Shown in pieces: positions 1,251 to 37,378 of a DNA stretch of 45,000 bases. Positions within the stretch are counted from its first letter, which is position 1; every line of letters starts with the position of its first letter. The notes beneath the pieces are model-generated. The model was not told where the DNA came from, did no database searches, and worked only from the letters and a program-made list of their open reading frames with translations. A program made the translations under genes and the position numbers. The stretch is from Neocallimastix lanati (nom. inval.) (lineage: Eukaryota > Neocallimastigomycota > Neocallimastigomycetes > Neocallimastigales > Neocallimastigaceae), in NCBI GenBank assembly GCA_016946835.1, contig JACVTC010000067.1, positions 310,001-355,000 of the forward strand, written 5' to 3'.

Positions 1251-1742
1251 GTTGATTATTAATTATTTATGATTATTATTAATATTATTTAATTTTTAAA
1301 TAAATTTTATAGAATGAATTTTGACTTAAAAAAAAAATGAAAAGTAATTATTATTTAATAAATTTATTAAATGGATAAATTTAATTTCTTCTGTATGATT
1401 AATACATTTTTAATAATAAATAAAAAAAAAAAATTTTTTTAATTTATATAAAATACTAATTGTAATATTGTAATATAATGTATTTGTAGAATAATTAATT
1501 TATAATATATAATGCTTAGCAATAATTCATTAATGGATTAAAATCCGCAAAAAAAAAGCAAATAAAATGTGAATATAATTTATGTAAAAAATATACAATA
1601 TATACAATAAAAAGAAAAAATAAAAAGAAAAATATTTAATAAAAAAAATTAGTTATATCAATTAAATACTTATTATATATATATAATAATCTATTAAATT
1701 TACATTAAAGTTAACATATTAAAAAAAAATCAATATATATTA

Positions 1743-2756
1743 TTATTAATCATTTTAATTTATTTCAAATTATTTCAATATTTCATACTAACTCATAACA
1801 CCTTAAAAAAGATATTTCTTTCCTAATAAATAAAATATATTCCATTACATTTTTAATTAGTCAATTTTAATCTATTTCAAATTATTCCAAGATTCTATAC
1901 TAACTCATAACACCTTAAAAAAGATATTTCTTTCCTAATAAATAAAATATATTCCATTACATTTTTGATTAGTCAATTTTAATCTATTCCAAATTATTCA
2001 AATATTCCATACTAACTCATAACACCTTAAAAAGATATTTCTTTCCTAATAAATAAAATATATTCTATTACATTTTTAATTAGTCAATTTTAATCTATTT
2101 CAAATTATTCCAAGATTCCATACTAACTCATAACACCTTAAAAAAGATATTTCTTTCTTAATAAATAAAATATATTCCATTACATTTTTAATTAGTCAAT
2201 TTTAATCTATTTCAAATTATTCCAAGATTCTATACTAACTCATAACACCTTAAAAAAGATATTTCTTTCCTAATAAATAAAATATATTCCATTACATTTT
2301 TAATTAGTCAATTTTAATCTATTTCAAATTATTCAAATATTCTATACTAACTCATAACACCTTAAAAAGATATTTCTTTCTTAATAAATAAAATATATTC
2401 CATTACATTTTTAATTAGTCAATTTTAATTTATTTCAAATTATTCCAAGATTCCATTCTAACTCATAACACCTTAAAAAAGATATTTCTTTCTTAATAAA
2501 TAAAATATATTCCATTACATTTTTAATTAGTCAATTTTAATCTATTTCAAATTATTCCAAGATTCCATACTAACTCATAACACCTTAAAAAGATATTTCT
2601 TTCCTAATAAATAAAATATATTCTATTACATTTTTAATTAGTCAATTTTAATCTATTTCAAATTATTCAAATATTCTATACTAACTCATAACACCTTAAA
2701 AAGATATTTCTTTCTTAATAAATAAAATATATTCTATTACATTTTTAATTAGTTAA
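1743..2756. repeat. 111-112 bp satellite, nine tandem units
   Basis: The string ACTCATAACACC recurs at 1791, 1903, 2015, 2126, 2238, 2350, 2461, 2573 and 2684, a spacing of 111 or 112 bp. Each unit contains GATATTTCTTTC, AATAAATAAAATATATTC, CATTACATTTTTAATTAG and TCAATTTTAAT. The units are very similar; differences are a few substitutions and five versus six A's before GATATTT. Units 3, 6 and 9 share a CAAATATT variant where most others have CCAAGATT, suggesting a three-unit higher-order period of about 335 bp. No open reading frame runs through it. Confidence 0.93.
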
Positions 2757-4795
2757 ATAGATAATCTTTAAACATAATTTAATATATATTAAATATACAA
2801 AGAAATATCTATTTTATTTAATACTAATATAGAGCTTTATTAGTGTTGTTAATGTATAATTAAAAGAAAATCAATTTTATATAAATAAAAATAACTTTCT
2901 TGATAGGATAAATTTTAATCAGTTTAATTTTTATTATACATATTTTTATATGTTATTAAATTTCAAGAAAATACTAGTTATTAATATTTATTAATTATAA
3001 CAGAAATAGGGAACACTTTACGATGATTTTCAATAATACATCCAACTAATAAAAAATATTTATTTATATTTTAATAGTTGAATGAGTAATTTTTTTTAGA
3101 AGCTTGAATTACTATTATAGTAATTTAATATAAATTAATTTAAATATAAATATAATAAATAATTTAATATATATAAAGGATTTCATTTAATTAGGGAAAA
3201 AAAATATACTATTAATTAATTCAAAGCTATAAACAAAACCATGATGATTATCTATAATTTTAGATTAAATCATTTTCATGCTATGTTTCTTTTATTTTCA
3301 TATTTGTACATATTAAAATTTTAAATTTATTATTTATTATTTGAATTTTCTTTTAAGAAAAATATATATTATTTTTAATATAATTAAAATAAATATATAA
3401 ACATTTATATATTACTTTTTCATCTATTATACAATGGAAGAATGAAATAGAATGAGAATGAAATAATATAAAATTAAATTAAAATGAGTAAAAATGATTG
3501 AAATTATTTAATTATTAATAATTAAATTAATTAGTCATAATGTATAAAAATTTAATATATTTAATTATGAGTAATTTAATTAGAGATTATTATACTAAAT
3601 TTGGTAATATATAAATTTATATTTTATTTATATATTAAAAGGATATCTATATTTAAAATTAATAAATAAAAACAATTAAAAGATTGAAATAAATTTTTAT
3701 TAATTGTTTAATATTCGGATTATAATCCACTTTTAAAGGTTATTGATTTATAGGTTGACTTAACCTTTTTAACCAGTTTATTAATATTACATAATCTCAT
3801 TCTATATTTAAATTTTTAAGATATTAATTTATATATATTTTTATTTATATATATATTTTTTTTATTTAAAAAGAAAAGTATAATCTCCATTTTCACTATA
3901 AATATGTTTATTAAATATTAATAAATTACTAAATTTTCTAAATTATTTCATTTTTAATATATTTATATTCTTTAAAATTTGGAATAAAATATTTTTAAAA
4001 AAAAAAATATTTTATAGTATATGTAATAAAATAAGGGAAATTTTGTAGGTTTATTACATTAAACTTTGTTATTACTAATATATATAATATATCATAAACT
4101 CAAAGAACTGGAAGTATTTATTTTTTTGGTATTTATTAAATTTCAAAAAAATAAATTTTTATATAATTTTTAATTAATTTATTAATGTTACAAGTTGTGT
4201 TTTTAATAAAATCTTAGTTTAAGTTACAAAATATAAATTAATTATTGTTTATATAAAGCAAAAAAAAAAAAAATAATAATAATAAAAATGATAAAAAAAA
4301 AAAAAAAAAGTGAAAACTACTTAATTGAATATTTTTATCAATTCATTTTTTTTTTCTTTTTTTTTTTTTTTGTCATTTTTATTTTTTATATTTAAAAATT
4401 TATTTGGTAATTACTTCTATATAATTTTCATATTTATTATATTTATTATATTTATTATATTTTTTATATTTATTATATATATTTTTAAAATAATTTTTTT
4501 TTTTTTTTATTTTTTTTTTTTTATTTTTTTTGGTTTACTATAAAGATAGTTAATTGTTTATAATTTGAAATATTTCATTTTCATTTTAGATTTAAAATTT
4601 GTTATTATTATAATTATTATAATAAAAGTTTTTTTATTAGTTTTTTTGCAACTTTATTATAACATATTATTATTATTATTAAAATGAATGAATTAATGTA
4701 CAAATTAACTTTTGTTTTATTTTCCTCTATTATTATAATTTTATCTTATTTTATTTTATTTTATTTATTATTATTATTTTATTTATCTTAATAAA
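2757..4795. other. Gene-free AT-rich spacer
   Basis: No reading frame with protein-like composition is visible on either strand. The only long frame (about 4325-4543) is a Phe/Ile string made by T-homopolymers and TTTATTATA repeats. A few slightly GC-richer patches (about 3000-3060 and 3715-3790) show no recognisable motif. Confidence 0.6.
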
Positions 4796-8790: not shown

Positions 8791-9366
8791 ATGTCTATTA
8801 TTTTATGTGATAAATCTCACCTTAAAGATTTAGTTGAATTTTATGAAGATGAAATTAGGTATTTAGAACAAAATATTAATTATCCAGATTGGAAATTAGG
8901 AAGTTATCCATCAGAAAGATCAATTTTAGGAGCTATTATGGCAAATAGTCAATATGCTTATATAAAAGATGGTGAGATTATTGGCGCTGTTGTATTAAAC
9001 GATGAACCAGGATGCAAATACGAAAATGCTAATATTGCTTGTAAATATAAGGAATATATGGTTATTCATGCTTTAGGAACTTCCCATAAATATTATAAAA
9101 AGGGAATTGCATCTGAAATTGTTAACTACTGTATTGAAAAGGCTAAAAAAGAAGGATATAAAGGAATTTACTGTGATGCCGCTCCTAAAAATACAGTTTC
9201 AAGAAATTTATTCCTTAAATTAGGTTTTAAGGATTTAGGAGTCTTTGATTTAGATAAAACAATTATTGGTATTCACAATGAAATATTAACTATAAAAGAA
9301 TTAAAAAAATTAGTTCCAGACCTTGAACTACCAGTTGATTTTCATGTTTTTGAAATGGTATTTTAA
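8791..9366 (+). CDS. GNAT-family N-acetyltransferase (paralogue 1)
   Basis: Encodes 191 residues without introns. GNAT enzymes transfer an acetyl group from acetyl-CoA to an amine. The acetyl-CoA binding motif A is visible at residues 91-114 (VIHALGTSHKYYKKGIASEI), where KKGIA fits the Q/R-x-x-G-x-G/A signature, and motif B follows at 127-150 with the typical SRNLFLKLGF helix. The start is chosen because an A-rich leader precedes the ATG and the second paralogue begins with the same MSIILCD. The N-terminal WKLGSYPSE stretch and overall layout resemble bacterial (Firmicutes-type) GNATs, which suggests an old transfer from bacteria; this is inferred. It differs from paralogue 2 by about 14 extra residues around 155-180. 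There is no targeting signal, so it is probably cytosolic. The substrate is unknown; small amines, antibiotics or peptides are all possible. Confidence 0.88.
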   Translation: MSIILCDKSHLKDLVEFYEDEIRYLEQNINYPDWKLGSYPSERSILGAIMANSQYAYIKDGEIIGAVVLNDEPGCKYENANIACKYKEYMVIHALGTSHKYYKKGIASEIVNYCIEKAKKEGYKGIYCDAAPKNTVSRNLFLKLGFKDLGVFDLDKTIIGIHNEILTIKELKKLVPDLELPVDFHVFEMVF

Positions 9367-11779: not shown

Positions 11780-12313
11780 ATGTCTATTATTTTATGTGAT
11801 GAGTCTAACATTAAAGAATTAGTCGAATTTTTTAAGGAGGAGGTAGCATATTTAGATCAAACTTTTAATTATCCAAAATGGAAATTTGGTTTGTATCCAT
11901 CAGAAGAATCAATTACTGAGGCTGTCACCAAGAAAGAACAATATGCTTATCTAATAGATGGTAAGATTGTTGGTGCTGTGGTCTTTAATGATAATCCAGG
12001 AGGCAAATATGAAAATGCTAACATTGTATGTAAACGTAATGAATATATGGTTATACATACTTTAGCAACTTCCCATAAATGTTACAAAAAGGGAATTGCT
12101 ACTAAAATTGTCAACTTTTGTATTGAAAAAGCTAAAAAAGAAGGATATAAAGGAGTTTATTCTGATATCATACCAACCAATGTTCTCTCAAAGAATTTAT
12201 TAACTAAATTAGGTTTTAAAAATTTAGGAACATTTGATTTAGAAAGAGATGAATTAATAAAAGTTTTCCCAGAAGGAGTACCAACTTTTACTGTTTTTGA
12301 ATTAGTATTTTAA
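11780..12313 (+). CDS. GNAT-family N-acetyltransferase (paralogue 2)
   Basis: Encodes 177 residues, intronless, clearly homologous along its length to the gene at 8791 (same MSIILCD start, same YPSE, motif A at 91-114 with KKGIAT, motif B at 127-150 with SKNLLTKLGF). It should therefore be an acetyl-CoA-dependent N-acetyltransferase with a related but perhaps not identical substrate. The C-terminal part lacks about 14 residues present in paralogue 1, and the region after residue 150 is the least conserved, which is where GNATs often shape the acceptor site. The gene lies about 2.4 kb downstream of paralogue 1 in the same orientation, with a duplicated promoter block, so this is a tandem duplication that has since diverged. 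The stop is followed by a T run, like paralogue 1. Confidence 0.88.
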   Translation: MSIILCDESNIKELVEFFKEEVAYLDQTFNYPKWKFGLYPSEESITEAVTKKEQYAYLIDGKIVGAVVFNDNPGGKYENANIVCKRNEYMVIHTLATSHKCYKKGIATKIVNFCIEKAKKEGYKGVYSDIIPTNVLSKNLLTKLGFKNLGTFDLERDELIKVFPEGVPTFTVFELVF

Positions 12314-18175: not shown

Positions 18176-21100
18176 TTAATTTTTAAGTGGAACTGGCCAG
18201 TAAGTGGAACGTTGGAATGGATAGGTTGGTAATTCTATTTTATGAACTGGACATGCTTTTTGAGTTTCAGCTTCCACTCTACTATTCACTACCTTCCAAT
18301 TAATGTTTTGTCCATTTTCATATTCATTCATAATGAATTGATCGAAAAGACTCTTCTTTGTACCATCATCAAAGAATTCGATAATATTAAGTGATGATGG
18401 GGATTCCGATATAATTTCTTGGTCCCCATTCATACTGTAAAGCGTCATATCCTTACTCTTTGGACCATATTTATTAATAAAGATAGAATAGTCATTCTTT
18501 TTCACTTCATTCTTACGCTTCATGATAGTAGAAATATCTTCAAAGGAGAGACTTTCTCCATTCTTGAATTCTTTTTCAAGAGATGGAATAAAGACTGTCT
18601 TTTGGAATTTTGGAATAGATTGCTTTCCGAACCAGGAAGAAAGATCACTACCATTCTCAGTAGCAGTTTGAATTAAGGAAATGGCTGAACTGAAAGATAA
18701 TCCTCCACTAAGAACTAAACTTATTATTTCTCCAAATCCAAATCCTCCATAAATCTTCTTACTACTGTTATTCTTTATCATTATGGATTCGACAAGTTGA
18801 TGTAAACTGTAATAGAAAGAAAGGATAAAGAATGAATTATTGAGTTCGCTTTCCTTTCCATTCTTTTCTTCTTCTATCATTTGTTTTAAGGAAATGCCTT
18901 CAGCAATCTTTTGAATTTCAGAGTCACAGAATTCGAATGTCTTCTTGAAACTATTTTCAGTAGATAAGAGCTCCTTAACGGTATCATAGACCTTTTTAGG
19001 AATTTGAAGATCACCAGCATTTTCAGAATAAATTTCAAGATGTTGAGAAATACCATTACTTTTGGAAGCAACCTGTTTGAATATAGCTTCACTATTATCT
19101 TCATCATCATCAAAGATTTCCATTTTTTTCTCAAGATCATCATAGAGTTCATGAGCATTCTTACCAATCGCTGAAATTCTATAATCGAAATGTTGACGAC
19201 CAACATTTGAAGTGTAACAGAGATCTTCAATATTTTCTTCATTATCTTCCATACCTTCAAGGAAGTTCAAATAACTTTCACATAATTCATTCAAAGCCGC
19301 TGGAGTTTTAGCACTAATGGTTAAGATATGATCTTCTTTACTATCCTTACTCTTCTTAACATCTTCTTCCTTTCCATTTTCTGGAATATATTCTTGAAGA
19401 ATGATATGAACAATACTACCTTGTAAACCAAAGGAAGATACTTGAGCAATACGTGGTTTGTTATCTTGTGTTTCCCATGGCATGGTTTTGGTAGCAATTT
19501 GAATTGGAATGGAATGAATATCAATTTCTGGATTAAGCGTATTGAAATGTAAATTCTTTGGAATATATTTATGTTGCATGGCTAAAATGACCTTAGCCAT
19601 ACCAGCTAAACCAGCGGCTTCATTAGTATGTCCAATGTTTGTTTTCACACTACCAATCACTAATGGATTTTCTTCGGTGTGACTACCTCCATAAACTTGA
19701 TTAAGGGCGTCAACTTCAATGGCATCACCAAGTGGAGTACCAGTACCATGAGCTTCAACAAAAGAAACTTCAGATGGATCAACACCTGCAAATTTAAGTG
19801 CTCTCTTCAAGTTAAGTACTTGACCATCAGAAGATGGTGCACTAATCGATTGTCTTAAACCACTTTGACCACTACTGGTACCAAGGATAACTGAAAGAAT
19901 ATTATCTCCATCACGAACAGCATCTTCAAGACGCTTCAAAATAAACGTAACACAACCTTCACCTGGTGCAAAACCATCAGCATCCTTATCAAACGTGGCA
20001 CAACGACCATGAGGAGAGGTCATACGAGCAACACTGGTTCTATGGAATTCAGAGGCAGAATATAAATATTTAACTCCGGAAACCACTGATAAGTCACAAT
20101 CTCCAAATTGTAAGGAACGACAAGCAGAGTGGAGGGCAGAAGCACCTGTAGAACAAGCAGTATCGATAGTAAAGGAAGGTCCGAAAAGTTTATAGAAGTA
20201 ACTGAGACGGCCAGCAATACCACTTGGAGTAGAATGTGCTGAAATAGGTTGAGCGATACCGTTTTCTTTCAATAAATCTTGATAGTCATGATCATCATTT
20301 ACACCCACGAAAACACCAGTGGTGGTATTTTCTAAGGTATTTGGAGCAATACCTGCATTTTCGAAAGCTTCCCAACTCGTTTCTAAGACCCAACGTTGTC
20401 TTGGATCCATACTATTGACTTCTTCAGGTAAACAGTTGAAGAATTCTGCATCAAATTCAGAAGGTTTAGCTGCATTTGAACGAGAATCGTAGCAACCACA
20501 TTTTGGAATATTATGTTCATTTTCTCCTAAAAGATTAGATGGTTTATCCACATAACCAAGGTGTAATTTTCTATCCTTGACTGGAGCCAAGACACAATCT
20601 CTACCTTTGGCTAAAGACATCCAGAACGATTTAGAATTATTGATGGCACCAGGTAAACGAAGAGCCATACCAATCACTGCCACTCTTTTATCCATCGAAA
20701 CATCCTTAATCGATTTTGGAAGGGAAGAAAGAGGAGAAGCTTTCTCTTTCAACTTTTTATCATAACCAGTAATATATCTCGCAAGATCATATGGAGTACC
20801 ATAGTTAAATAAGGTGGAAGCAGAGAATGGTTTTAAGGTCTTTCGATTTAAAACACTAGTTAATTTTCTGGTAGCAAGAGAATCAATACTGTAGATAGTA
20901 AATGGTGCATTAATATTGAAATCTTCAAAATCTGGAGTAGAAGGAATAATTTCTTTAATGGATTCATAAACAATCATTACTGCTTTTTGAATTTCTTCAT
21001 TAATTTCTTCTTCTGTTTTATTCTCTGTAACAATTTCAGTTTCTTTCTCTGTTTGAACATTGGTTTCTTTTTCATTTTCTGTAATTGAATTATCTTTTTC

Positions 21101-23476
21101 TTTAACTTCTTTAACTTCTTCTTCTTCTTGTTTTCCTTCTTTTCCTTCTTTATCTTTTCCTTCGTCTTCTTCTTCTTCTTCTCTCTTTTTTTCTTCTTGT
21201 TTTTGTTTTAATAGGTCATCAATAGCTTCATCAATTGAACTAATTTTACCATTAATAAGATTAGACATTTGATTTAAAACTTCTGAATATTCTAATTTAG
21301 CAACTCTTCTAGCAACTGAACCTTTAGCCGTTACTGGGAACTGCTTACCATAATCAATAATATAAACATTATGAATGGTAAGTTGTTTTGTCCAATTATT
21401 TAAACTTTTGGCATTATCTTGTAATAAGTTGTACATACTATTCCATGTTTGTTCTTGAGCTAATTTCTTAAGCTTTCGTTGTTCTTCCTTACTTAAACTT
21501 TCTGGATCAATCGTGATATCTAATGGGGTTCCATCTTCCATTAAAATTTCTGACCATTCTGGTTCAACGAAGCAAACCACTTCATATTGAGTATTATCCA
21601 CTAATAGACAACAGTGTTTGATATTTTTACATTCACTAGACATGGTATTTTCAAATGGAAGTGGGTTCATTTTATGACCGGTTGCAAAGGTTAAAATATC
21701 ATCTACTCTGGAAACATATTTGTAATCACCAGAAATGGTACTACGAGTCCAAATATCATTGGTTCGATAGTATTCAATTCCATCAATTGTTTCATAAAGA
21801 TTATCGTGTTCATAATCACAACGCATTCCTGGTACAGCTGATTCATAGAATTCACCTTTCTTTGCCCTTCCAATATAACCGGTGATTGCGAATGGATTGT
21901 AGATAAAGAGCTCACCTTCATTTGGATTATTTTCATCAATAAGTTTAAAATGGAAATATTGCCATGGGACTCTAGTGAGGTAACCTTCTTCTCCTGGGAC
22001 GAGATCTTTATCAAATTGTTTATACATCATAATACCAGTTTCCGAGGAACCGTATTCATTATTAATTAAAATCTTAAATGTTTGATTAAACCAATGAAGC
22101 AAATCATAGCCGATGGGGGCACCACCTGTTCTAAAACAATTCTTGGGACAGGCCTGGATGGCTTTCTCCCAAACCTCACATCTTGGATGATGTTCATCAA
22201 AAAGTCTTTTAATTTCTGCATAATTAAATGGGAAGAGAGGAATGACTCCAGGTTTAGTCTCCACTATATCATCTAATAATACTTCTGGTACAAATCCAAT
22301 ATCATGTAATTTTTGAGTATGGAAAATTAAGGCGCCTCCAGTATTCATATGATGAACGCCAATCCAGGTGAAACCCATCATATGATAGGAGGGAATGCTG
22401 GCAAGAACACTGTATTTAAGGCTTATCTTTCGAGTCAATAATATGTTTTGAAAAAGACTACCACATTGAATTAATCGAACAGGAATAAACTTCATTTTGG
22501 AGCAGTGTCCATTTTTAATGATAGCTTGAGTGGAAGAAGAAGTACCAATAACCATGACCACATCATCTTTTAAACCGGGACGTGCATACGTTTTACCTTC
22601 AAGACTACATTGATAAATTTCTTCAAGAAATTCTGAATTATTCATACAAAACATAGGAATTCCTTTGAAGCCAGCACTTAAATTATATTCGTCTTCACGT
22701 AAAGGATATTCCCATTCCCATATCCATTCACCACTTTCATTTAATTGATTTTGTTTTTCTTCATCAAAAATATTAACATTAATATCATAAATAAACATAC
22801 TAATATCGAGCATTCTAGCCCAAAATTGTTTAACATCATTACCGAGTTTAGGAGGAACAGCTACAGGTGTACAACGAATATACCAGAGAGCATAAATAAT
22901 TAAAATATTTAAGGGTAAAGTATTGGCGACCACACCTACTCTAGATTGAGGTGGTAAATCAAATCTTTTTTTAAGGACATAAGCACAAGCTTTCACTAAT
23001 CTAAAAAATTGTTTATAGGAAACACAAGTCCATGGGGAAGGATAATCAGGATGAGGTTCCGGTTTAAATGGTAAACTCCAAAGATTTGGTTTAGAAACCA
23101 AGGCTGGTTCATCACTATCCTTACAAAGATTATAACGATATTCTAATCTTTCATAAATAGTTTCAGCTTTAAGTAAATCTTCACTTTAAAGCAATAAAAA
23201 TAAGAAAAAAAAAAAAATAAATAAATATTATTAATAATAAAGAAATAACATAAATACTAATTCAGCATTAATATTATAAAAATTATATATCATATAACAG
23301 ACAAAAATATTTTTATTTGCCAAATATACATTTTAAAATTATTATAAAAATTTTAAATTTTAATTTTAAATTTTAATTCGATGTTTATTCCACTAATAAA
23401 AAAATATAATCAAAATTAAAAATGAAATAAAAATAACAAAATTTAACTATTATTATAACGCTTAATAATAATTTTA

Positions 23477-23518
<42 letters not shown>

Positions 23519-23607
23519 TACAGATAGGAATTAGGTTTTTCTTTTAAGAAAATTTCTTTTCCTAATTCAAATAAATTTGAATAGTTTCTTGGATCAATTT
23601 CTGTCAT
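18176..23607 (-). CDS. Adenylation-ACP-ketosynthase-degenerate AT synthase, copy 1 (two exons)
   Basis: Exon 1 is 23607-23522 (86 nt, ATG at 23607) and exon 2 is 23183-18176; the 338-nt intron has GTAAGT and AAAG ends and joins in phase (CT+T, Leu), giving 1697 residues. In order: adenylation domain (about 70-665) that should activate a carboxylic acid as AMP ester, with a divergent A3 loop GTSSSTQ (242-248), A5 NNEYGSSE (403-410), A7-like YRTND (501-505), A8-like SRVDD (520-524) and a candidate A10 Lys in TAKG (649); an acidic Glu/Lys linker (about 690-760); a carrier domain with Ser797 in IDSL for phosphopantetheine; a complete ketosynthase (about 860-1293) with Cys1039 (DTACSTG), His1174 (EAHGTGT) and His1214 (NIGHTN); the ketosynthase extension; then an acyltransferase-like remnant whose active-site motif is GFGFGE (1509-1514), lacking the Ser, ending in YPFQRSTYW. 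No reductase, dehydratase or thioesterase. Likely one loading plus one condensation step; product unknown. Confidence 0.9.
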
Positions 23608-24646: not shown

Positions 24647-27600
24647 TTAATTTTTAAGTGGAACTGGCCAGTAAGTGGAACGTTGGAATGGATAGGTTGG
24701 TAATTCTATTTTATGAACTGGACATGCTTTTTGAGTTTCAGCTTCCACTCTACTATTCACTACCTTCCAATTAATATTTTGTCCATTTTCATATTCATTC
24801 ATAATGAATTGATCGAAAAGACTCTTCTTTGTGTCATCATCAAAGAATTCGATAATATGAAGTGATGATGGAGAGCCGGTTGTAATTTCTTGATCACCAT
24901 TCATACTGTAAAGCGTCATGTTCTTACTCTTTGGACCATATTTATTAATAAAGATAGAATAGTCATTCTTTTTCATTTCATTCTTACGCTTCATGATAGT
25001 AGAAATATCTTCAAAAGAGAGACTTTCTCCATTCTTGAATTCTTTTTCAAGAGATGGAATAAAGATTGTCTTTTGGAATTTTGGAATGCATTGATTTTTG
25101 AACCAGGAAGAAAGATCATTACCATTCTCAGTAGCAGTTTGAATTAAGGAAATGGCTGAACTGAAAGATAATCCTCCACTAAGAACTAAACTTATTATTT
25201 CTCCAAATCCAAATCCTCCATAAATCTTCTTACTACTGTTATTCTTTATCATTATGGATTCGACAAGTTGATGTAAACTATAATAGAAAGAAAGGATAAA
25301 GAATGAATTATTGAGTTTACTTTCTTTTCCATTCTTTTCTTCTTCTATCATTTGTTTTAAGGAAATGCTTTCAGCAATCTTTTGAATTTCAGAGTCACAG
25401 AATTCGAATGTCTTCTTGAAATTATTTTCAGTAGATAAGAGCTCCTTAACTGTATCATATACCTTTTTAGGAATTTGAAGATCACCAGCATTTTCAGAAT
25501 AAATTTCAAGATGTTGAGATATACCATTACTTTTGGAAGCAACCTGTTTGAATATAGCTTCACTATTATCATCATCATCATCAAAGATTTCCATTTTTTT
25601 CTCAAGATCATCATAGAGTTCATGAGCATTCTTACCAATCGCTGAAATTCTATAGTCGAAATGTTGACGACCAACATTTGAAGTGTAACAGAGATCTTCA
25701 ATATTTTCTTCATTATCTTCCATACCTTCAAGGAAGTTCAAATAACTTTCACATAATTCGTTCAAAGCCGCTGGAGTTTTAGCACTAATGGTTAAGATAT
25801 GATCTTCTTTACTATCCTTACTCTTCTTAACATCTTCTTCCTTTCCATTTTCTGGAATATATTCTTGAAGAATGATATGAACAATACTACCTTGTAAACC
25901 AAAGGAAGATACTTGAGCAATACGTGGTTTGTTATCTTGTGTTTCCCATGGCATGGTTTTGGTAGCAATTTGAATTGGAATGGAATGGATATCAATTTCT
26001 GGATTAAGCGTATTGAAATGTAAATTCTTTGGAATATATTTATGTTGCATGGCTAAAATGACCTTAGCCATACTAGCTAAACCAGCGGCTTCATTAGTAT
26101 GTCCAATGTTTGTTTTCACACTACCAATCACTAATGGATTTTCTTCAGTGTGACTACCTCCATAAACTTGATTAAGGGCGTCAACTTCAATGGCATCACC
26201 AAGTGGAGTACCAGTACCATGAGCTTCAACAAAAGAAACTTCAGATGGATCAACACCTGCAAATTTAAGTGCTCTCTTCAAGTTAAGTACTTGACCATCA
26301 GAAGATGGTGCACTAATCGATTGTCTTAAACCACTTTGACCACTGCTGGTACCAAGAATGACTGAAAGAATATTATCTCCATCACGAACAGCATCTTCAA
26401 GACGTTTTAAAATAAACGTAACACATCCTTCACCTGGTGCAAAACCATCAGCATCCTTATCAAACGTGGCACAACGACCATGAGGAGAGGTCATACGAGC
26501 AACACTGGTTCTATGGAATTCAGAGGCAGAATATAAATATTTAACTCCGGAAACCACCGATAAGTCACAATCTCCAAATTGTAAGGAACGACAAGCAGAG
26601 TGGAGGGCGGAAGCACCTGTGGAACAGGCAGTATCGATAGTAAAGGAAGGTCCGAAAAGTTTATAGAAGTAACTGAGACGGCCAGCAATACCACTTGGAG
26701 TAGAATGTGCTGAAATAGGTTGAGCGATACCATTTTCTTTCAATAAATCTTGATAGTCATGATCATCGTTTACACCCACGAAAACACCAGTGGTGGTATT
26801 TTCTAAGGTATTTGGAGCAATACCTGCATTTTCGAAAGCTTCCCAACTCGTTTCTAAGACCCAACGTTGTCTTGGATCCATACTATTGACTTCTTCAGGT
26901 AAACAGTTGAAGAATTCTGCATCAAATTCAGAAGGTTTAGCTGCATTTGAACGAGAATCGTAACAACCACATTTTGGAATATTATGTTCATTTTCTCCTA
27001 AAAGATTAGATGGTTTATTCACATAGCCAAGATGTAATTTTCTATTCTTGACTGGAGCCAAGACACAATCTCTACCTTTGGCTAAAGACATCCAGAACGA
27101 TTTAGAATTATTGATGGCACCAGGTAAACGAAGAGCCATACCAATCACTGCCACTCTTTTATCCATTGAAACATCCTTAATCGATTTTGGAAGGGAAGAA
27201 AGAGGAGAAGCTTCCTCTTTCAACTTTTTATCATAACCAGTAATATATCTCGCAAGATCATATGGAGTACCATAGTTAAATAACGTGGAAGCAGAGAATG
27301 GTTTTAAGGTCTTTCGATTTAAAACACTAGTTAATTTTCTGGTAGCAAGAGAATCAATACTGTAGATAGTAAATGGTGCATTAATATTGAAATCTTCAAA
27401 ATCTGGAGTAGAAGGAATAATTTCTTTAATGGATTCATAAACAATCATTACTGCTTTTTGAATTTCTTCATTAATTTCTTCTTCTGTTTTATTCTCTGTA
27501 ACAATTTCAGTTTCTTTCTCTGTTTGAACATTGGTTTCTTTTTCATTTTCTGTAATTGAATTATCTTTTTCTTTAACTTCTTTAACTTCTTCTTCTTCTT

Positions 27601-29950
27601 CTTCTTCTTCTTGTTTTCCTTCTTTTTCTTTTCCTTCGTCTTCTTCTTCTTCTCCTCTCTTTTTTTCTTCTTGTTTTTGTTTTGATAGATCATCAATAGC
27701 TTCATCAATTGAATTAATTTTACCATTAATAAGATTAGACATTTGATTTAAAACTTTTGAATATTCTAATTTAGCAATTCTTCTAGAAAGTGAACCTTTA
27801 GCTGTTACTGGGAACTGCTTACCATAATCAATAATATAAACATTATGAATGGTAAGTTGTTTCGTCCAATTATTTAAACTCTTGGCATTATCTTGTAATA
27901 AGTTGTACATACTATTCCAAGTTTGTTCTTGAGCTAATTTCTTAAGCTTTCGTTGTTCTTCCTTACTTAAACTTTCTGGATCAATCGTGATATCTAATGG
28001 GGTTCCATCTTCCATTAAAATTTCTGACCATTCTGGTTCAACGAAACAAACCACTTCATATTGAGTACTATCTACTAAAAGACAACAGTGTTTGATATTT
28101 TTACATTCACTAGACATAGTACTTTCAAATGGAAGTGGGTTCATTTTATGACCGGTTGCAAAGGTTAAAATATCATCTATTCTAGAAACATATTTGTAAT
28201 CACCAGAAATGGTACTACGAGTCCAAATATCATTGGTTCGATAGTATTCAATTCCATCAATTGTTTCATAAAGATTATCGTGTTCATAATCACAACGCAT
28301 TCCTGGTACAGCTGATTCATAGAATTCACCTTTCTTTGCCCTTCCAATATAACCGGTGATTGCGAATGGATTGTAGATAAAGAGCTCACCTTCATTTGGA
28401 TTATTTTCATCAATAAGTTTAAAATGGAAATATTGCCATGGGACTCTAGTGAGGTAACCTTCTTCTCCTGGGACGAGATCTTTATCAAATTGTTTATACA
28501 TCATAATACCAGTTTCCGAGGAACCGTATTCATTATTGATTAAACGATTAAATTTTTGATAAAACCACTGAATCAAATCATTACTTATAGGAGCACCAGC
28601 TGTTCTAAAACAATTATTGGAACAGGCCTTAATGGCTTTCTCCCAAACCTCACATCTTGGATGATGTTCATCAAAAAGTCTTTTAATTTCTGCATAATTA
28701 AATGGGAAGAGAGGAATGACTCCAGGTTTAGTCTCCACTATATCATCTAATAATACTTCTGGTACAAATCCAATATCATGTAATTTTTGAGTATGGAAAA
28801 TTAAGGCGCCTCCAGTATTCATATGATGAACGCTGAGCCAGATATAACCCAGCATATGATAGGAGGGAATGTCAACGAGAACACTGTATTTAAGGTTTAC
28901 CTTTCGATTCAATAATATGGTTTGAAAAAGACCACAACATTGAATTAATCGAATAGGTATAAACTTCATTTTGGAGCAGTGTCCATTTTTAATGATAGCT
29001 TGAGAGGAAGAAGAAGTACCAATAACCATGATCACATCATCTTTTAAACCGGGACGTACATACGTTTTACCTTCAAGACTACATTGATAAATTTCTTCAA
29101 GAAATTCTGAATTATTCATACAAAACATAGGAATTCCTTTGAAGCCAGCACTTAAATTGTATTCATCTTCACGTAAAGGATATTCCCATTCCCATATCCA
29201 TTCACCACTTTCATTTAATTGATTTTGTTTTTCTTCGTCAAAAATATTAACATTAATATCATAAATAAACATACTAATATCGAGCATTCTAGCCCAAAAT
29301 TGTTTAATATCATTACCAAGTTTAGGAGGAACAGCTACAGGTGTACAGCGAATATACCAGAGAGCATGAATAATTAAAAAATTTAAGGGTAAAGCATTGG
29401 CGACCACACCTACTCTAGATTGAGGTGGTAAATCAAATCTTTTTTTAAGGACATAGGCACAAGCTTTCACTAATCTAAAAAATTGTTTATAGGAAACACA
29501 AGTCCATGGGGAAGGATAATCAGGGTGAAGTTCCGGTTTAAATGGTAAACTCCAAAGATTTGGTTTAGAAACCAAGGCTGGTTCATCACTATCCTTACAA
29601 AGACTATAACGATATTCTAATCTTTCATAAATAGTTTCAGTTTTAAGTAAATCTTCACTTTAAAACGATAAAATTAAAAAATAAATATTATTAGTAATAA
29701 AGAAATAACATAAATACTAATTCAGCACTAATATTATAAATAATTATAAATCATATAACAGACTAAAATATTTTTATTTGCCAAATATCCATTTTAAAGT
29801 TATTATAATAATTTTAAATTTTAATTTTAAATTTTAATTCAATGTTTATTCCACTAATAAAAAAATACAATTCAAAATTAAAACGAATTAAAAATAACAA
29901 AATTTTACTATTATTATAATTATTATAACTTTTAATAACATTTTTATATA

Positions 29951-30002
<52 letters not shown>

Positions 30003-30091
30003 TACAGATAGGAATTAGGTTCTTCTTTTAAGAAAATCTCCTTTCCTAATTCAAATAAATTTGAAAAGTTTCTTGGATCAATTTCTGTCAT
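24647..30091 (-). CDS. Adenylation-ACP-ketosynthase-degenerate AT synthase, copy 2 (two exons)
   Basis: Exon 1 is 30091-30006 (86 nt) and exon 2 is 29657-24647; the intron is 348 nt with a GTAAG donor followed by a run of about 47 T's. The product is 1698 residues with the same domain order as copy 1 and all key residues: carrier Ser798, ketosynthase Cys1040, His1175 and His1215, and the serine-less GFGFGE at 1510-1515. From the A5 motif to the ketosynthase end it is nearly identical to copy 1. In contrast, residues 256-318 and 372-402 of the adenylation domain differ at many positions (for example VDIPSYHMLGYIWLSV against ASIPSYHMMGFTWIGV), which should change the acid it loads. The acidic linker has one more residue than copy 1, from GAA-repeat slippage. 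The stop lies about 1.04 kb upstream of the copy 1 start; with no shared divergent promoter, each copy is probably transcribed on its own. Confidence 0.9.
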
Positions 30092-31951: not shown

Positions 31952-34900
31952 TTAATTCTTAAGAGGAACTGGCCAGTAAGTGGAACGTTGGAATGGATAG
32001 GTTGGTAATTCTATTTTATGAACTGGACATGCTTTTTGAGTTTCAGCTTCCACTCTACTATTAACTACCTTCCAATCAATATTTTGTCCATTTTCATATT
32101 CATTCATAATGAATTGATCGAAAAGACTCTTCTTTGTGTCATCATCAAAGAATTCGATAATATGAAGTGATGATGGAGAGCCGGTTGTAATTTCTTGATC
32201 ACCATTCATACTGTAAAGCGTCATATCCTTACTCTTTGGACCATATTTATTAATAAAGATGGAATAGTCATTCTTTTTCATTTCATTCTTACGCTTCATG
32301 ATAGTAGAAATATCTTCAAAGGAGAGACTTTCTCCATTCTTGAATTCTTTTTCAAGAGATGGAATAAAGATTGTCTTTTGGAATTTTGGAATGCATTGAT
32401 TTTTGAACCAGGAAGAAAGATCATTACCATTCTCAGTAGCAGTTTGAATTAAGGAAACAGCTGAACTGAAGGATAATCCTCCACTAAGAACTAAACTTAT
32501 TATTTCTCCAAATCCAAATCCTCCATATATCTTCTTACTACTGTTATTCTTTATCATTATGGATTCGACAAGTTGATGTAAACTATAATAGAAAGAAAGG
32601 ATAAAGAATGAATTATTGAGTTTACTTTCCTTTCCATTCTTTTCTTCTTCTATCATTTGTTTTAAGGAAACGCTTTCAGCAATCTTTTGAATTTCAGAGT
32701 CACAGAATTCGAATGTCTTCTTGAAATTATTTTCAGTAGATAAGAGCTCCTTAACAGTATCATAGACCTTTTTAGGAATTTGAAGATCACCGGCATTTTC
32801 AGAATAAATTTCAAGATGTTGAGAAATACCATTACTTTTGGAAGCAACCTGTTTGAATATAGATTCACTATTATCTTCATCATCATCAAAGATTTCTATT
32901 TTTTTCTCAAGATCATCATAGAGTTCATGAGCATTCTTACCAATCGCTGAAATTCTATAGTCGAAATGTTGACGACCAACATTTGAAGTGTAACAGAGAT
33001 CTTCAATATTTTCTTCATTATCTTCCATACCTTCAAGGAAGTTCAAATAACTTTCACATAATTCATTCAAAGCCGCTGGAGTTTTAGCACTAATAGTTAA
33101 GATATGATCTTCTTTACTATCCTTACTCTTCTTAACATCTTCCTCCTTTCCATTTTCTGGAATATATTCTTGAAGAATGATATGAATAATACTACCTTGT
33201 AAACCAAAGGAAGATACTTGAGCAATACGTGGTTTGTTATCTTGTGTTTCCCATGGCATGGTTTTGGTAGCAATTTGAATTGGAATGGAATGAATATCAA
33301 TTTCTGGATTAAGCGTATTGAAATGTAAATTCTTTGGAATATATTTATGTTGCATGGCTAAAATGACCTTAGCTATACTAGCTAAACCAGCGGCTTCATT
33401 AGTATGTCCAATGTTTGTTTTCACACTACCAATCACTAATGGATTTTCTTCAGTGTGACTACCTCCATAAACTTGATTAAGGGCGTCAACTTCAATGGCA
33501 TCACCAAGTGGAGTACCAGTACCATGAGCTTCAACAAACGAAACTTCAGATGGATCAACACCTGCAAATTTAAGTGCTCTCTTCAAGTTAAGTACTTGAC
33601 CATCAGAAGATGGTGCACTAATCGATTGTCTTAAACCACTTTGACCACTGCTGGTACCAAGGATAACTGAAAGAATATTATCTCCATCACGAACAGCATC
33701 TTCAAGACGTTTTAAAATAAACGTAACACATCCTTCACCTGGTGCAAAACCATCAGCATCCTTATCAAACGTGGCACAACGACCATGAGGAGAGGTCATA
33801 CGAGCAATACTAGTTCTATGGAATTCAGAGGCAGAATATAAATATTTAACTCCGGAAACCACCGATAAGTCACAATCTCCAAATTGTAAGGAACGACAAG
33901 CAGAGTGGAGGGCAGAAGCACCTGTGGAACAGGCAGTATCGATAGTAAAAGAAGGTCCGAAAAGTTTATAGAAATAACTGAGACGGCCAGCAATACCACT
34001 TGGAGTAGAATGTGCTGAAATAGGTTGAGCGATACCATTTTCTTTCAATAAATCTTGATAGTCATGATCATCGTTTACACCCACGAAAACACCCGTAGTG
34101 GTATTTTCTAAGGTATTTGGAGCAATACCTGCATTTTCGAAAGCTTCCCAACTCGTTTCTAAAACCCAACGTTGTCTTGGATCCATACTATTGACTTCTT
34201 CAGGTAAACAGTTGAAGAATTCTGCATCAAATTCAGAAGGTTTAGCTGCATTTGAACGAGAATCGTAGCAACCACATTTTGGAATATTATGTTCATCTTC
34301 TCCTAAAAGATTAGATGGTTTATCTACATAGCCAAGATGTAATTTTCTATTCTTGACCGGAGCCATGACACAATCTCTACCTTTGGCTAAAGACATCCAG
34401 AATGATTTAGAATTATTGATGGCACCAGGTAAACGAAGAGCCATACCAATCACTGCCACTCTTTTATCCATTGAAACATCCTTAATCGATTTTGGAAGGG
34501 AAGAAAGAGGAGAAGCTTCCTCTTTCAACTTTTTATCATAACCAGTAATATATCTAGCAAGATCATATGGAGTACCATAGTTAAATAAGGTGGAAGCAGA
34601 GAATGGTTTTAAGGTCTTTCGATTTAAAATACTAGTTAATTTTCTGGTAGCAAGAGAATCAATACTGTAGATAGTAAATGGTGCATTAATATTGAAATCT
34701 TCAAAATCTGGAGTAGAAGGAATAATTTCTTTAATGGATTCATAAACAATCATTATTGCTTTTTGAATTTCTTCATTAATTTCTTCTTCTGTTTTATTCT
34801 CTGTAACAATTTCAGTTTCTTTCTCTGTTTGAACATTGGTTTCTTTTTCATTTTCTGTAATTGAATTATCTTTTTCTTTAACTTCTTTAACTTCTTCTTC

Positions 34901-36941
34901 TTCTTCTTGTTTTCCTTCTTTTCCTTCTTCTTCTCTCGTTTTTTCTTCTTGTTTTTGTTTTGATAGGTCATCAATAGCTTCATCAATTGAATTAATTTTA
35001 CCATTAATAAGATTAGACATTTGATTTAAAACTTCTGAATATTCTAATTTAGCAACTCTTCTCGCAACTGAACCTTTAGCCGTTACTGGGAACTGCTTAC
35101 CATAATCAATAATATAAACATTATGAATGGTAAGTTGTTTCGTCCAATTATTTAAACTCTTGGCATTATCTTGTAATAAGTTGTACATACTATTCCATGT
35201 TTGTTCTTGAGCTAATTTCTTAAGCTTTCGTTGTTCTTCCTTACTTAAACTTTCTGGATCAATCGTGATGTCTAATGGGGTTCCATCTTCCATTAAAATT
35301 TCTGACCATTCTGGTTCAACGAAACAAACCACTTCATATTGAGTACTATCTACTAAAAGACAACAGTGTTTGATATTTTTACATTCACTAGACATAGTAC
35401 TTTCAAATGGAAGTGGGTTCATTTTATGACCGGTTGCAAAGGTTAAAACATCATCTACTCTGGAAACATATTTGTAAGCACCAGTAACGGTATTACGAGT
35501 CCAAATATCATTGGTTCGATAGTATTCAATTCCATCAATTGTTTCATAAAGATTATCGTGTTCATAATCACAACGCATTCCTGGTACAGCTGATTCGTAG
35601 AATTCACCTTTCTTTGCCCTTCCAATATAACCGGTGACAGCAAATGGATTGTAGATAAAGAGCTCACCTTCATTTGGATTATTTTCATCAATTAGTTTAA
35701 AATGGAAATATTGCCATGGGACCCTTTTGAGATAACCTTCTTCTCCTGGGACGATTTTTTCATCAAATTGTTTATACATCATAATTCCTGTTTCCGAGGA
35801 ACCGTATTCATTATTGATTACAAGATTAAATTTTTGATAAAACCAATGAACCATCTCATCGCTTATGGGGGCACCAGCTGTTCTAAAACAATTCTTGGGA
35901 CAGGCCTTGATGGCTTTCTCCCAAACCTCACACCTTGGATGATGTTCATCAAAAAGTCTTTTAATTTCTTCATAATTAAATGGGAAGAGAGGAACGATTC
36001 CCGGTTTAGTCTCCACTATATCATCTAATAATACTTCTGGTACAAATCCAATATCATGTAATTTTTGAGTATGGATAATTAAGGCACCTCCAATATTCAT
36101 ATGTTGAATGACGATCCAGGTGAAACCCAACATATGATAGGTGGGAATGCTAGCAAGAACACTATATTTAAGGTTTACCTTTCTATTCAGTAAGATGGTT
36201 TGTAAAATATTACCACATTGCTTTAATCGAATAGGAATAAACTTCATTTTGGAGGTGTGACCATTTTTAATGATAGCTTGAGTGGAAGAAGAAGTACCAA
36301 TAACCATGACCACATCATCTTTTAAACCGGGACGTACATACGTTTTACCTTCAAGACTACATTGATAAATTTCTTCAAGAAATTCTGAATTATTCATACA
36401 AAACATAGGAATTCCTTTGTAGCCAGCACTTAAATTATATTCATCTTCACGTAAAGGATATTCCCATTCCCATATCCATTCACCACTTTCATTTAATTGA
36501 TTTTGTTTTTCTTCGTCAAAAATATTAACATTAATATCATAAATAAACATACTAATATCGAGCATTCTAGCCCAAAATTGTTTAACATCATTACCGAGTT
36601 TAGGAGGAACAGCTACAGGTGTACAACGAATATACCAGAGAGCATGAATAATTAAAAAATTTAAGGGTAAAGCATTGGCGACCACACCTACTCTAGATTG
36701 AGGTGGTAAATCAAATCTTTTTTTAAGGACATAAGCACAAGCTTTCACTAATCTAAAAAATTGTTTATAGGAAACACAAGTCCATGGGGAAGGATAATCA
36801 GGATGAGGTTCCGGTTTAAACGGTAAACTCCAAAGATTTGGTTTAGAAACCAAGGCTGGTTCATCACTATCCTTACAAAGATTATAACGATATTCTAATC
36901 TTTCATAAATAGTTTCAGCTTTAAGTAAACCTTCACTTTAA

Positions 36942-36972
<31 letters not shown>

Positions 36973-37378
36973 GAAATAATACATTTAAAAATATTATTAG
37001 TAATAAAGATATAACATAAATACTAATTCAACATTAATATTATAAATAATTATATATAATATAACAGAAGAACATATTTTTTTTTCCAATATCCATTTTA
37101 AAATTATTATAATAAATTTAAATTTTAATTTTAAATTTTAATTCAATTTTTATTCCACTAATAAAAAAATATAAATAAAATAAAAATAAAATAAAAATAA
37201 TAAATTTTGCTATTATAATAATTATTAATAACAATTTTATAAAAAAAAATAATAAAAAAGAAAAAGAAAAAAAAAAAAAAAAAAAAACTTACATATAGGG
37301 ATTAGGTTCTTCTTTTAAGAAAATCTCCTTTCCTAATTCAAGTATATTTTTATAGTTTCTTGGATCAATTTCTCTCAT
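31952..37378 (-). CDS. Adenylation-ACP-ketosynthase-degenerate AT synthase, copy 3 (two exons)
   Basis: Exon 1 is 37378-37293 (86 nt, begins MREIDPRNY where the others have MTEIDPRN) and exon 2 is 36935-31952; the intron is 357 nt. The product is 1689 residues. Domain order matches copies 1 and 2: adenylation, acidic linker (shortest of the three, about 8 residues less than copy 1), carrier with Ser789, ketosynthase with Cys1031, His1166 and His1206, and the acyltransferase-like remnant with GFGFGE at 1501-1506. It is the most diverged copy in the adenylation domain, with its own residues at the pocket windows (ASIPTYHMLGFTWIVIQHMN; APISDEMVHWFYQKFN) and also in DEKIVPGEEGYLKR and NTVTGAYK where copies 1 and 2 agree with each other. 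Copy 3 is thus probably the oldest branch, with copies 1 and 2 split later or homogenised by gene conversion. Likely role: loads an acid on its own carrier and condenses it; product unknown. Confidence 0.9.

What the first reader, a model, noticed from the sequence alone, without database searches (positions are those of the whole stretch)
22064..22504. Substrate-pocket windows diverge while the rest of the synthases stay nearly identical
Between the A3 loop and A5 motif, two short windows differ sharply between the three copies: protein residues 256-318 (copy 1 22316-22504, copy 2 28790-28978, copy 3 36068-36256) and 372-402 (copy 1 22064-22156, copy 2 28538-28630, copy 3 35816-35908). By eye, copies 1 and 2 differ at about 14 of 63 and 12 of 30 positions there, against a few per hundred elsewhere and almost none in the ketosynthase. 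In ANL enzymes this is where the A4 helix and the pocket-lining segment before A5 lie. That pattern suggests diversification of the loaded acid on a fixed condensation scaffold, perhaps with gene conversion homogenising the rest.
Basis: partly seen in the sequence, partly recalled or inferred. Interest (0 to 1): 0.88.

Follow-up and report, generated by a model that had tools for sequence, protein, structure and literature searches.

The report
Tandem fungal synthases, two divergent patches
A gut fungus carries three neighbouring, nearly identical enzyme genes that differ sharply in just two short patches of the part that picks the starting acid, a pattern expected when gene conversion keeps the rest alike, so the copies may load different building blocks.

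Summary
The window is Neocallimastix lanati (anaerobic gut fungus; copy 1 equals protein P0002). Three tandem two-exon genes encode A-ACP-KS synthases ending in an AT fold without its catalytic serine. Residues 256-318 and 372-402 differ 8-10 times more at non-synonymous sites than the rest, and 2.2-3.5 times more at silent sites. Copies 1 and 2 are identical over codons 305-370 and 403-519; all 19 of their differences in 305-519 lie in 371-402. So this is a gene-conversion mosaic with islands. Omega is 0.69 in the windows, 0.17 outside; omega = 1 is not rejected, so positive selection is not shown. A Piromyces sp. E2 pair shows a like peak in window 1 (42% against 11%). Two other clades show no window excess, a third does (1.4-2.0 fold). 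The pocket reading is only partly right: residue 382 (G/A/A) and 300 or 301 fall in pocket registers, but much of patch 2 is one helix outside them and the A5 pocket residues do not vary. Best reading: conversion homogenises the scaffold while selection keeps specificity-linked segments apart. Known analogues: opsin exon 5, bacterial NRPS A-domain recombination.

The parts
18176..23607 (-). Copy 1 gene: exon 1 23522-23607, intron 23184-23521, exon 2 18176-23183; 1697 aa
   Evidence: spliced model identical to P0002, N. lanati
24647..30091 (-). Copy 2 gene: exon 1 30006-30091, intron 29658-30005, exon 2 24647-29657; 1698 aa
31952..37378 (-). Copy 3 gene: exon 1 37293-37378, intron 36936-37292, exon 2 31952-36935; 1689 aa
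22316..22504 (-). Window 1 of copy 1 (residues 256-318; core of c1-c2 difference 262-304 = 22358-22486): helix after A3, A4 motif and following helix
   Evidence: secondary structure
22064..22156 (-). Window 2 of copy 1 (residues 372-402; island 371-402 = 22064-22159): GGAP strand and following helix up to A5
22160..22357 (-). c1-c2 identical tract, codons 305-370
   Evidence: 0 of 198 nt differ; permutation p 0.004 for the tract 304-371
21713..22063 (-). c1-c2 identical tract, codons 403-519
   Evidence: 0 of 351 nt differ; permutation p 1e-4 for the tract 403-520
28790..28978 (-). Window 1, copy 2
28538..28630 (-). Window 2, copy 2
36068..36256 (-). Window 1, copy 3
35816..35908 (-). Window 2, copy 3
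21350..23101 (-). A (ANL) domain of copy 1, residues 57-640
22124..22126 (-). Residue 382 (G in c1, A in c2 and c3), PheA 301 register
   Evidence: role of position 301 in PMC3098103
20825..21112 (-). ACP of copy 1, approximate limits, attachment Ser 797
   Evidence: SIDSL; Ser in 19 of 19 covering rows; PP-binding hit in 4 of 6 relatives scanned, not in copies 1-3
19544..20689 (-). KS of copy 1
   Evidence: Pfam 1.2e-65; Cys 16 of 16, first His 16 of 16, second His 15 of 15 covering rows
18179..19012 (-). AT-like C-terminal region of copy 1 without catalytic Ser (motif GGFGFGE at 18728-18748)

Best explanation
Three tandem copies of an A-ACP-KS(-dead AT) synthase exchange sequence by ectopic gene conversion (shown as a mosaic; donors and dates are inferred). 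Two segments of the A domain's substrate-binding subdomain, codons about 256-304 and 371-402, have escaped homogenisation and carry about three-fold deeper silent divergence and about ten-fold higher amino-acid divergence (shown). The most likely reason is that conversion across them is selected against because they tune which carboxylic acid each copy activates and loads onto its ACP, with some neutral or surface change hitchhiking in the islands (inferred). The ACP-bound acyl group would pass to the intact KS; because the in-cis AT lacks its serine, the extender unit must come from a partner protein (inferred). The starter is perhaps an aryl or hydroxycinnamic acid by analogy with FnsA (speculative).
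For: Mosaic tracts and islands. Window pN 0.125-0.138 against 0.013-0.017; pS 0.157-0.211 against 0.058-0.072. Codon model: windows have their own omega, 2dlnL 17.9 on the whole gene and 12.9 in the A domain. Same kind of peak in the Piromyces sp. E2 pair P0028/P0030, where only window 1 could be compared: 25 of 59 against 29 of 255 in the rest, p 2e-7. No excess in the six pairs of the P0012-P0015 clade (ratio 0.73-1.04) or the three of the P0007/P0009/P0011 clade (1.11-1.32), so the windows are not unconstrained everywhere. Residue 382 G/A/A at the position-301 register, where a Val to Ala change is reported to lengthen the acetyl-CoA synthetase pocket. Theory and the opsin precedent for such a peak (PMC3924837, passages).
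Against: omega in the windows is 0.69; omega = 1 fits almost as well (0.7-1.0 lnL units) and omega > 1 is not shown. Against other unconverted segments the N:S contrast is not significant (p 0.10-0.27). Only 2-3 of about 10 pocket registers vary; the A5 registers are invariant. A third clade without known tandem duplication (P0005, P0006, P0008, P0010, P0016; ten pairs) does show a window excess of 1.43-1.98 (each p 0.0052 or less), and so does the cross-genus pair P0029/P0031 (1.94, p 0.0012), so the windows can also diverge between loci or species without conversion. In the Piromyces pair divergence runs on into the middle segment (39 of 53 identical), unlike here, and P0030 is a truncated gene model. 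No substrate, expression or ligand-bound structure data.
Confidence: 0.45

Rival explanations
1. Neutral conversion boundary plus low constraint: two segments happened to miss recent conversion and tolerate substitutions, with no difference in substrate.
For: Silent divergence in the windows equals that of other unconverted segments (p 0.35-0.63) and the N:S contrast with them is not significant; omega about 0.7; the windows are the least conserved of the five A-domain parts compared family-wide (mean column identity 0.35 and 0.36 against 0.53-0.56); a third clade shows a 1.43-1.98-fold window excess over ten pairs.
Against: Amino-acid divergence 3-4 times that of those unconverted segments (p 3e-5 to 1e-3); no window excess in two clades (nine pairs); a peak in a Piromyces pair; window 2 is a sharp island in an otherwise identical c1-c2 stretch of 215 codons.
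Confidence: 0.34
2. Import: one or both segments of a copy were overwritten by conversion from a more distant paralogue elsewhere in the genome.
For: Sharp edges; the most diverged copy differs between windows (copy 3 in window 1, copy 1 in window 2).
Against: No close donor among the relatives compared: the best window-2 match of a copy to another family protein in the pairs printed is 18 of 31. The own genome could not be searched, so a donor is not excluded.
Confidence: 0.12
3. The windows diverged for a protein-protein or conformational reason (carrier docking, dimer contacts), not for the acid.
For: Window 2 is largely one helix whose changes include polar and charged residues (N/Y/Y, T/K/K, K/N/N, I/R/L).
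Against: Window 1 includes the A4 motif and helix; no partner is known.
Confidence: 0.09

Closest known systems
Human red/green opsin exon 5 peak of divergence (Teshima and Innan model; passages of PMC3924837 read)
   Same: Tandem duplicates homogenised by conversion with a divergence peak around functionally different residues
   Different: There the functional residues are known; here two peaks in a synthase and no assay
Bacterial NRPS A-domain recombination (PMC8097286, PMC9205934; passages read)
   Same: Diversification concentrated in the A-core substrate-binding part while the rest is kept
   Different: Those are exchanges of larger A-core stretches in bacteria with known products; here short islands in fungal tandem paralogues and no known donor
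Fungal A-T-KS-AT hybrids: FnsA (PMC9606254, passages read); HispS, AnATPKS, HppS (named there, not read)
   Same: Loading A-T followed by KS-AT; FnsA loads p-coumaric and p-hydroxybenzoic acids
   Different: Here the protein stops after an AT that lacks its serine: no second ACP, no DH, KR or TE
Carboxylic acid reductase A domain (5mso)
   Same: Ungapped match from the GGAP strand through A5
   Different: Weak overall match (E 0.039); KS instead of a reductase domain
PKSs of anaerobic gut fungi (PMC8106346; passages and sections 5, 6, 8, 11 read)
   Same: Phylum-restricted PKS families
   Different: Windows, tandem mosaic and dead AT not mentioned in the parts read; supplements not seen

Membership tests
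ANL adenylation domain | ANL fold | tested here: met
ANL adenylation domain | A10 catalytic lysine | tested here: met
   19 of 19 covering rows
ANL adenylation domain | Canonical P-loop A3 (TSGSTGxPKG, recalled) | tested here: inconclusive
   Altered: GTSS[ST]xQA in 20 of 20 covering rows, followed by AIIKNG in the copies
ANL adenylation domain | Adenylation activity | not testable with these tools
   no assay
Type I PKS KS | Cys-His-His | tested here: met
   16 of 16, 16 of 16 and 15 of 15 covering rows
PKS acyltransferase (active) | AT fold | tested here: met
PKS acyltransferase (active) | GxSxG nucleophile serine | tested here: not met
   Gly, Asp, Lys or Glu in 15 of 15 covering rows
FnsA/HispS-type fungal NRPS-PKS | A-T-KS-AT order | tested here: met
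   AT inactive by sequence
FnsA/HispS-type fungal NRPS-PKS | Downstream ACP | tested here: not met
   Protein ends at YPFQRSTYWPVPLKN
Peak of divergence under gene conversion | Conversion tracts beside segments with raised silent divergence | tested here: met
Peak of divergence under gene conversion | Functional difference at the peak | not testable with these tools
   no assay

The most novel reading that the evidence does not exclude
Anaerobic gut fungi keep tandem arrays of loading synthases as a starter-acid wardrobe: ectopic conversion constantly renews one shared scaffold while two short specificity segments of the A domain are protected from it, the same design having arisen in Neocallimastix and Piromyces. 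The left border of segment 1 coincides with an intron site (codon 258) that relatives seem to retain, so exon borders may once have set the cassette edge.
Probability: 0.2. Interest if true: 0.72.

Novelty: new variant of a known kind. Interest (0 to 1): 0.5.

Why it matters
If true, nature has drawn, inside one tandem array, the minimal segments to swap in order to change the starter of an A-ACP-KS synthase, and the natural swap experiment is ready to test. It would also be a eukaryotic synthase case of conversion-opposed divergence, known from opsins and, as recombination, from bacterial NRPSs.

Tried and rejected
A search of the window's own genome for further paralogues and a donor of the islands was asked 13 times in the same form and never answered. 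Loci in viral contigs and genome contigs: pattern matches (38 and 95, two peptide patterns each) but no relative confirmed. PDB sequence searches with A-domain queries gave no E below 0.0099; a profile that included KS was swamped by KS. The stretch with pLDDT under 50 at model 214-227 = residues 270-283 weakens the reading of window 1's first helix. Trans-species age of the islands: not supported, as the copies remain closer to each other than to other genera in both windows in the pairs printed. Polarising the changes with four outgroup proteins: inconclusive, 21 of 33 two-state window sites unresolved. Assembly error: thought unlikely, as the copies' differences keep the frame and copy 1 equals P0002.

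Intron divergence (31 of 324, 35 of 334 and 40 of 329 aligned sites) exceeds silent divergence outside the windows, which fits homogenised exons but is weak because the introns are low-complexity. Permutation and scan tests treat sites as exchangeable; the simple count was made on a stretch chosen after seeing the data.

Dropped rows: pair ratios use pairs with at least 25 window and 150 other residues, and only pairs with rest divergence under 0.42 were printed; P0017-P0027 (KS-level matches) and P0032-P0037 (too short) were not used in ratios.

Full report

Family. Of 26 proteins found with copy 1, P0002-P0016 (15) are A-KS relatives at 42-100% identity; those with an organism label are from Neocallimastix, Anaeromyces, Piromyces and (by the label Orpsp) Orpinomyces, and five have none; P0017-P0027 (11) cover 27-48% of the query, mainly the KS. 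With the A domain alone, 5 of 5 hits and, with residues 180-460 of all copies, 8 of 8 hits are gut-fungal or unnamed. No relative was confirmed in the viral or prokaryote genome collections. These searches reach only relatives that share short words or patterns. The A-domain fold is closest to aryl and acyl CoA ligases, but the best VIA rows are tied.

The observation. Window 1 (256-318) and window 2 (372-402) have pooled non-synonymous divergence higher than any other window of their size outside their own neighbourhood (0 of 1481 and 0 of 1593), while 10 and 55 of those windows reach their silent divergence. Pairwise pN is 0.125-0.138 in the windows against 0.013-0.017 outside; pS is 0.157-0.211 against 0.058-0.072 (Fisher p for pS 0.0002-0.035). 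A scan without preset windows finds the same two places.

A conversion mosaic. The pattern of shared bases changes along the gene: of 235 variable sites 93 pair copies 1 and 2, 77 pair 2 and 3, 61 pair 1 and 3, and 4 differ in all. Long tracts are non-random: copies 1 and 2 share codons 403-520 (p 1e-4) and 304-371 (p 0.004), copies 2 and 3 share 1609-1657 (p 2e-4); the other tracts listed had p 0.05 or more. Between codons 305 and 519 copies 1 and 2 differ at 19 bases, all of them in codons 371-402. Window 2 is thus an island in an otherwise identical stretch; window 1 has such a sharp edge on its right side only.

How much is selection. A codon model gives omega 0.69 in the windows and 0.17 elsewhere (2dlnL 17.9; 12.9 within the A domain); fixing omega = 1 in the windows costs only 0.7 lnL units (1.0 within the A domain), so neither relaxation nor positive selection is singled out. 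Neutral depth in the windows is about three times that of the rest (summed branch lengths 1.11 against 0.38). Against other segments that escaped conversion (403-520 for copy 3, 1531-1657 for copy 1; four comparisons) the windows have the same silent divergence but three to four times the amino-acid change; the N:S contrast with these segments is not significant.

Comparison across the family. In the clade P0012-P0015 the window-to-rest ratio over its six pairs is 0.73-1.04, and in P0007/P0009/P0011 over its three pairs 1.11-1.32, none significant. In a third clade (P0005, P0006, P0008, P0010, P0016) it is 1.43-1.98 over ten pairs, each p 0.0052 or less, and 1.94 (p 0.0012) in the sister pair P0029/P0031. 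So the windows are held as firmly as the rest in some lineages and diverge faster in others, as expected of a part that follows substrate, but also of a part whose constraint varies. In the N. lanati copies the ratio is 6.8-12.8 and in the Piromyces sp. E2 pair P0028/P0030, where only window 1 could be compared, 3.7 (p 2e-7). The remaining printed pairs lie at 1.28-2.02. Which pairs are orthologues is inferred from the tree, not from synteny. In the Piromyces pair the middle segment is also diverged (39 of 53 identical), so the match is not exact.

Pocket mapping. By motif register the variable pocket positions are 382 (G/A/A; PheA 301) and 300 (F/Y/F) or 301 (T/I/T) at PheA 239, plus 298 (M/L/L) if the A4 histidine is set at 234 as in PMC3098103. 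Registers 278, 299, 322, 330 and 331 are the same in all copies (of the PheA numbers 234, 235, 239, 278, 299, 301 and 322 are in the passages read; the rest and the register by motif are recalled). PMC3098103 reports that a Val to Ala change at the 301 position lengthens the acetyl-CoA synthetase pocket and that the luciferase glycine there is important. The register of 382 is supported by an ungapped match to the CAR A domain. Residues 388-398 of window 2 are one helix after the GGAP strand; that it lies on the surface is recalled from ANL structures, not computed. Hence the windows overlap the specificity subdomain but are not a list of pocket residues.

Likely working. Inferred: each copy adenylates a carboxylic acid, loads its ACP, and the KS extends or transfers it with an extender from a partner, since the in-cis AT cannot work by its usual serine. 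FnsA, an A-T-KS-AT-DH-KR-ACP-TE fungal synthase, loads p-coumaric and p-hydroxybenzoic acids (PMC9606254, passages); hydroxycinnamic acids are abundant in the fungus's plant diet (own knowledge), so they are a first guess. Conversion renews the scaffold; variants that mix the two segments would be lost if the copies have different roles. This is the known model for conversion with local selection, shown for red and green opsins (PMC3924837, passages), and it parallels A-core recombination in bacterial NRPSs (PMC8097286, PMC9205934, passages).

In print. The gut-fungal natural-product survey (PMC8106346; passages and sections 5, 6, 8 and 11 read) describes 23 PKS genes in six families but, in the parts read, neither this mosaic nor the dead AT; its supplements were not open to me. 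The rows listed by the searches showed no title or abstract beginning on this pattern in these fungi; this covers only the held open-access library.

Noticed in passing
window 18728-18748 (copy 1) and equivalent sites in P0003-P0014: The C-terminal AT fold keeps GxxxGE (with one extra residue in P0006) but lacks the catalytic serine in 15 of 15 covering rows: a dead AT beside an otherwise intact KS across the family.
   Followed up: partly
proteins P0033, P0034, P0035, P0036, P0037, P0011, P0008: Relatives seem to have a phase-1 intron at codon 258, the left edge of window 1: P0035 and P0036 run into S/R-K-F-F-F, as a GTAAG donor with a T run would read; P0033, P0034 and P0037 end there; P0011 starts at the next Met; P0008 skips about 30 residues. 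P0032 reads on. Copies 1-3 have no intron there. Inferred from protein letters; no DNA seen.
   Followed up: partly
   Followed up: partly
A3 motif, residues 242-254 of the copies: The P-loop of the A domain is altered family-wide (GTSS[ST]xQA in 20 of 20 covering rows).
   Followed up: no
A4 motif, residue 296: The A4 histidine is kept in 18 of 21 rows but is Gln in P0005 and Phe in P0029 and P0031, hinting at different substrates in those members.
   Followed up: no
window 8791-9366 and 11780-12313: Two GNAT acetyltransferase genes, plus strand, 81% identical over a 300-nt repeat: another local duplication.
   Followed up: no
window 1694-2886: Nine overlapping 300-nt repeat copies at a spacing of 111-112 bp.
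   Followed up: no
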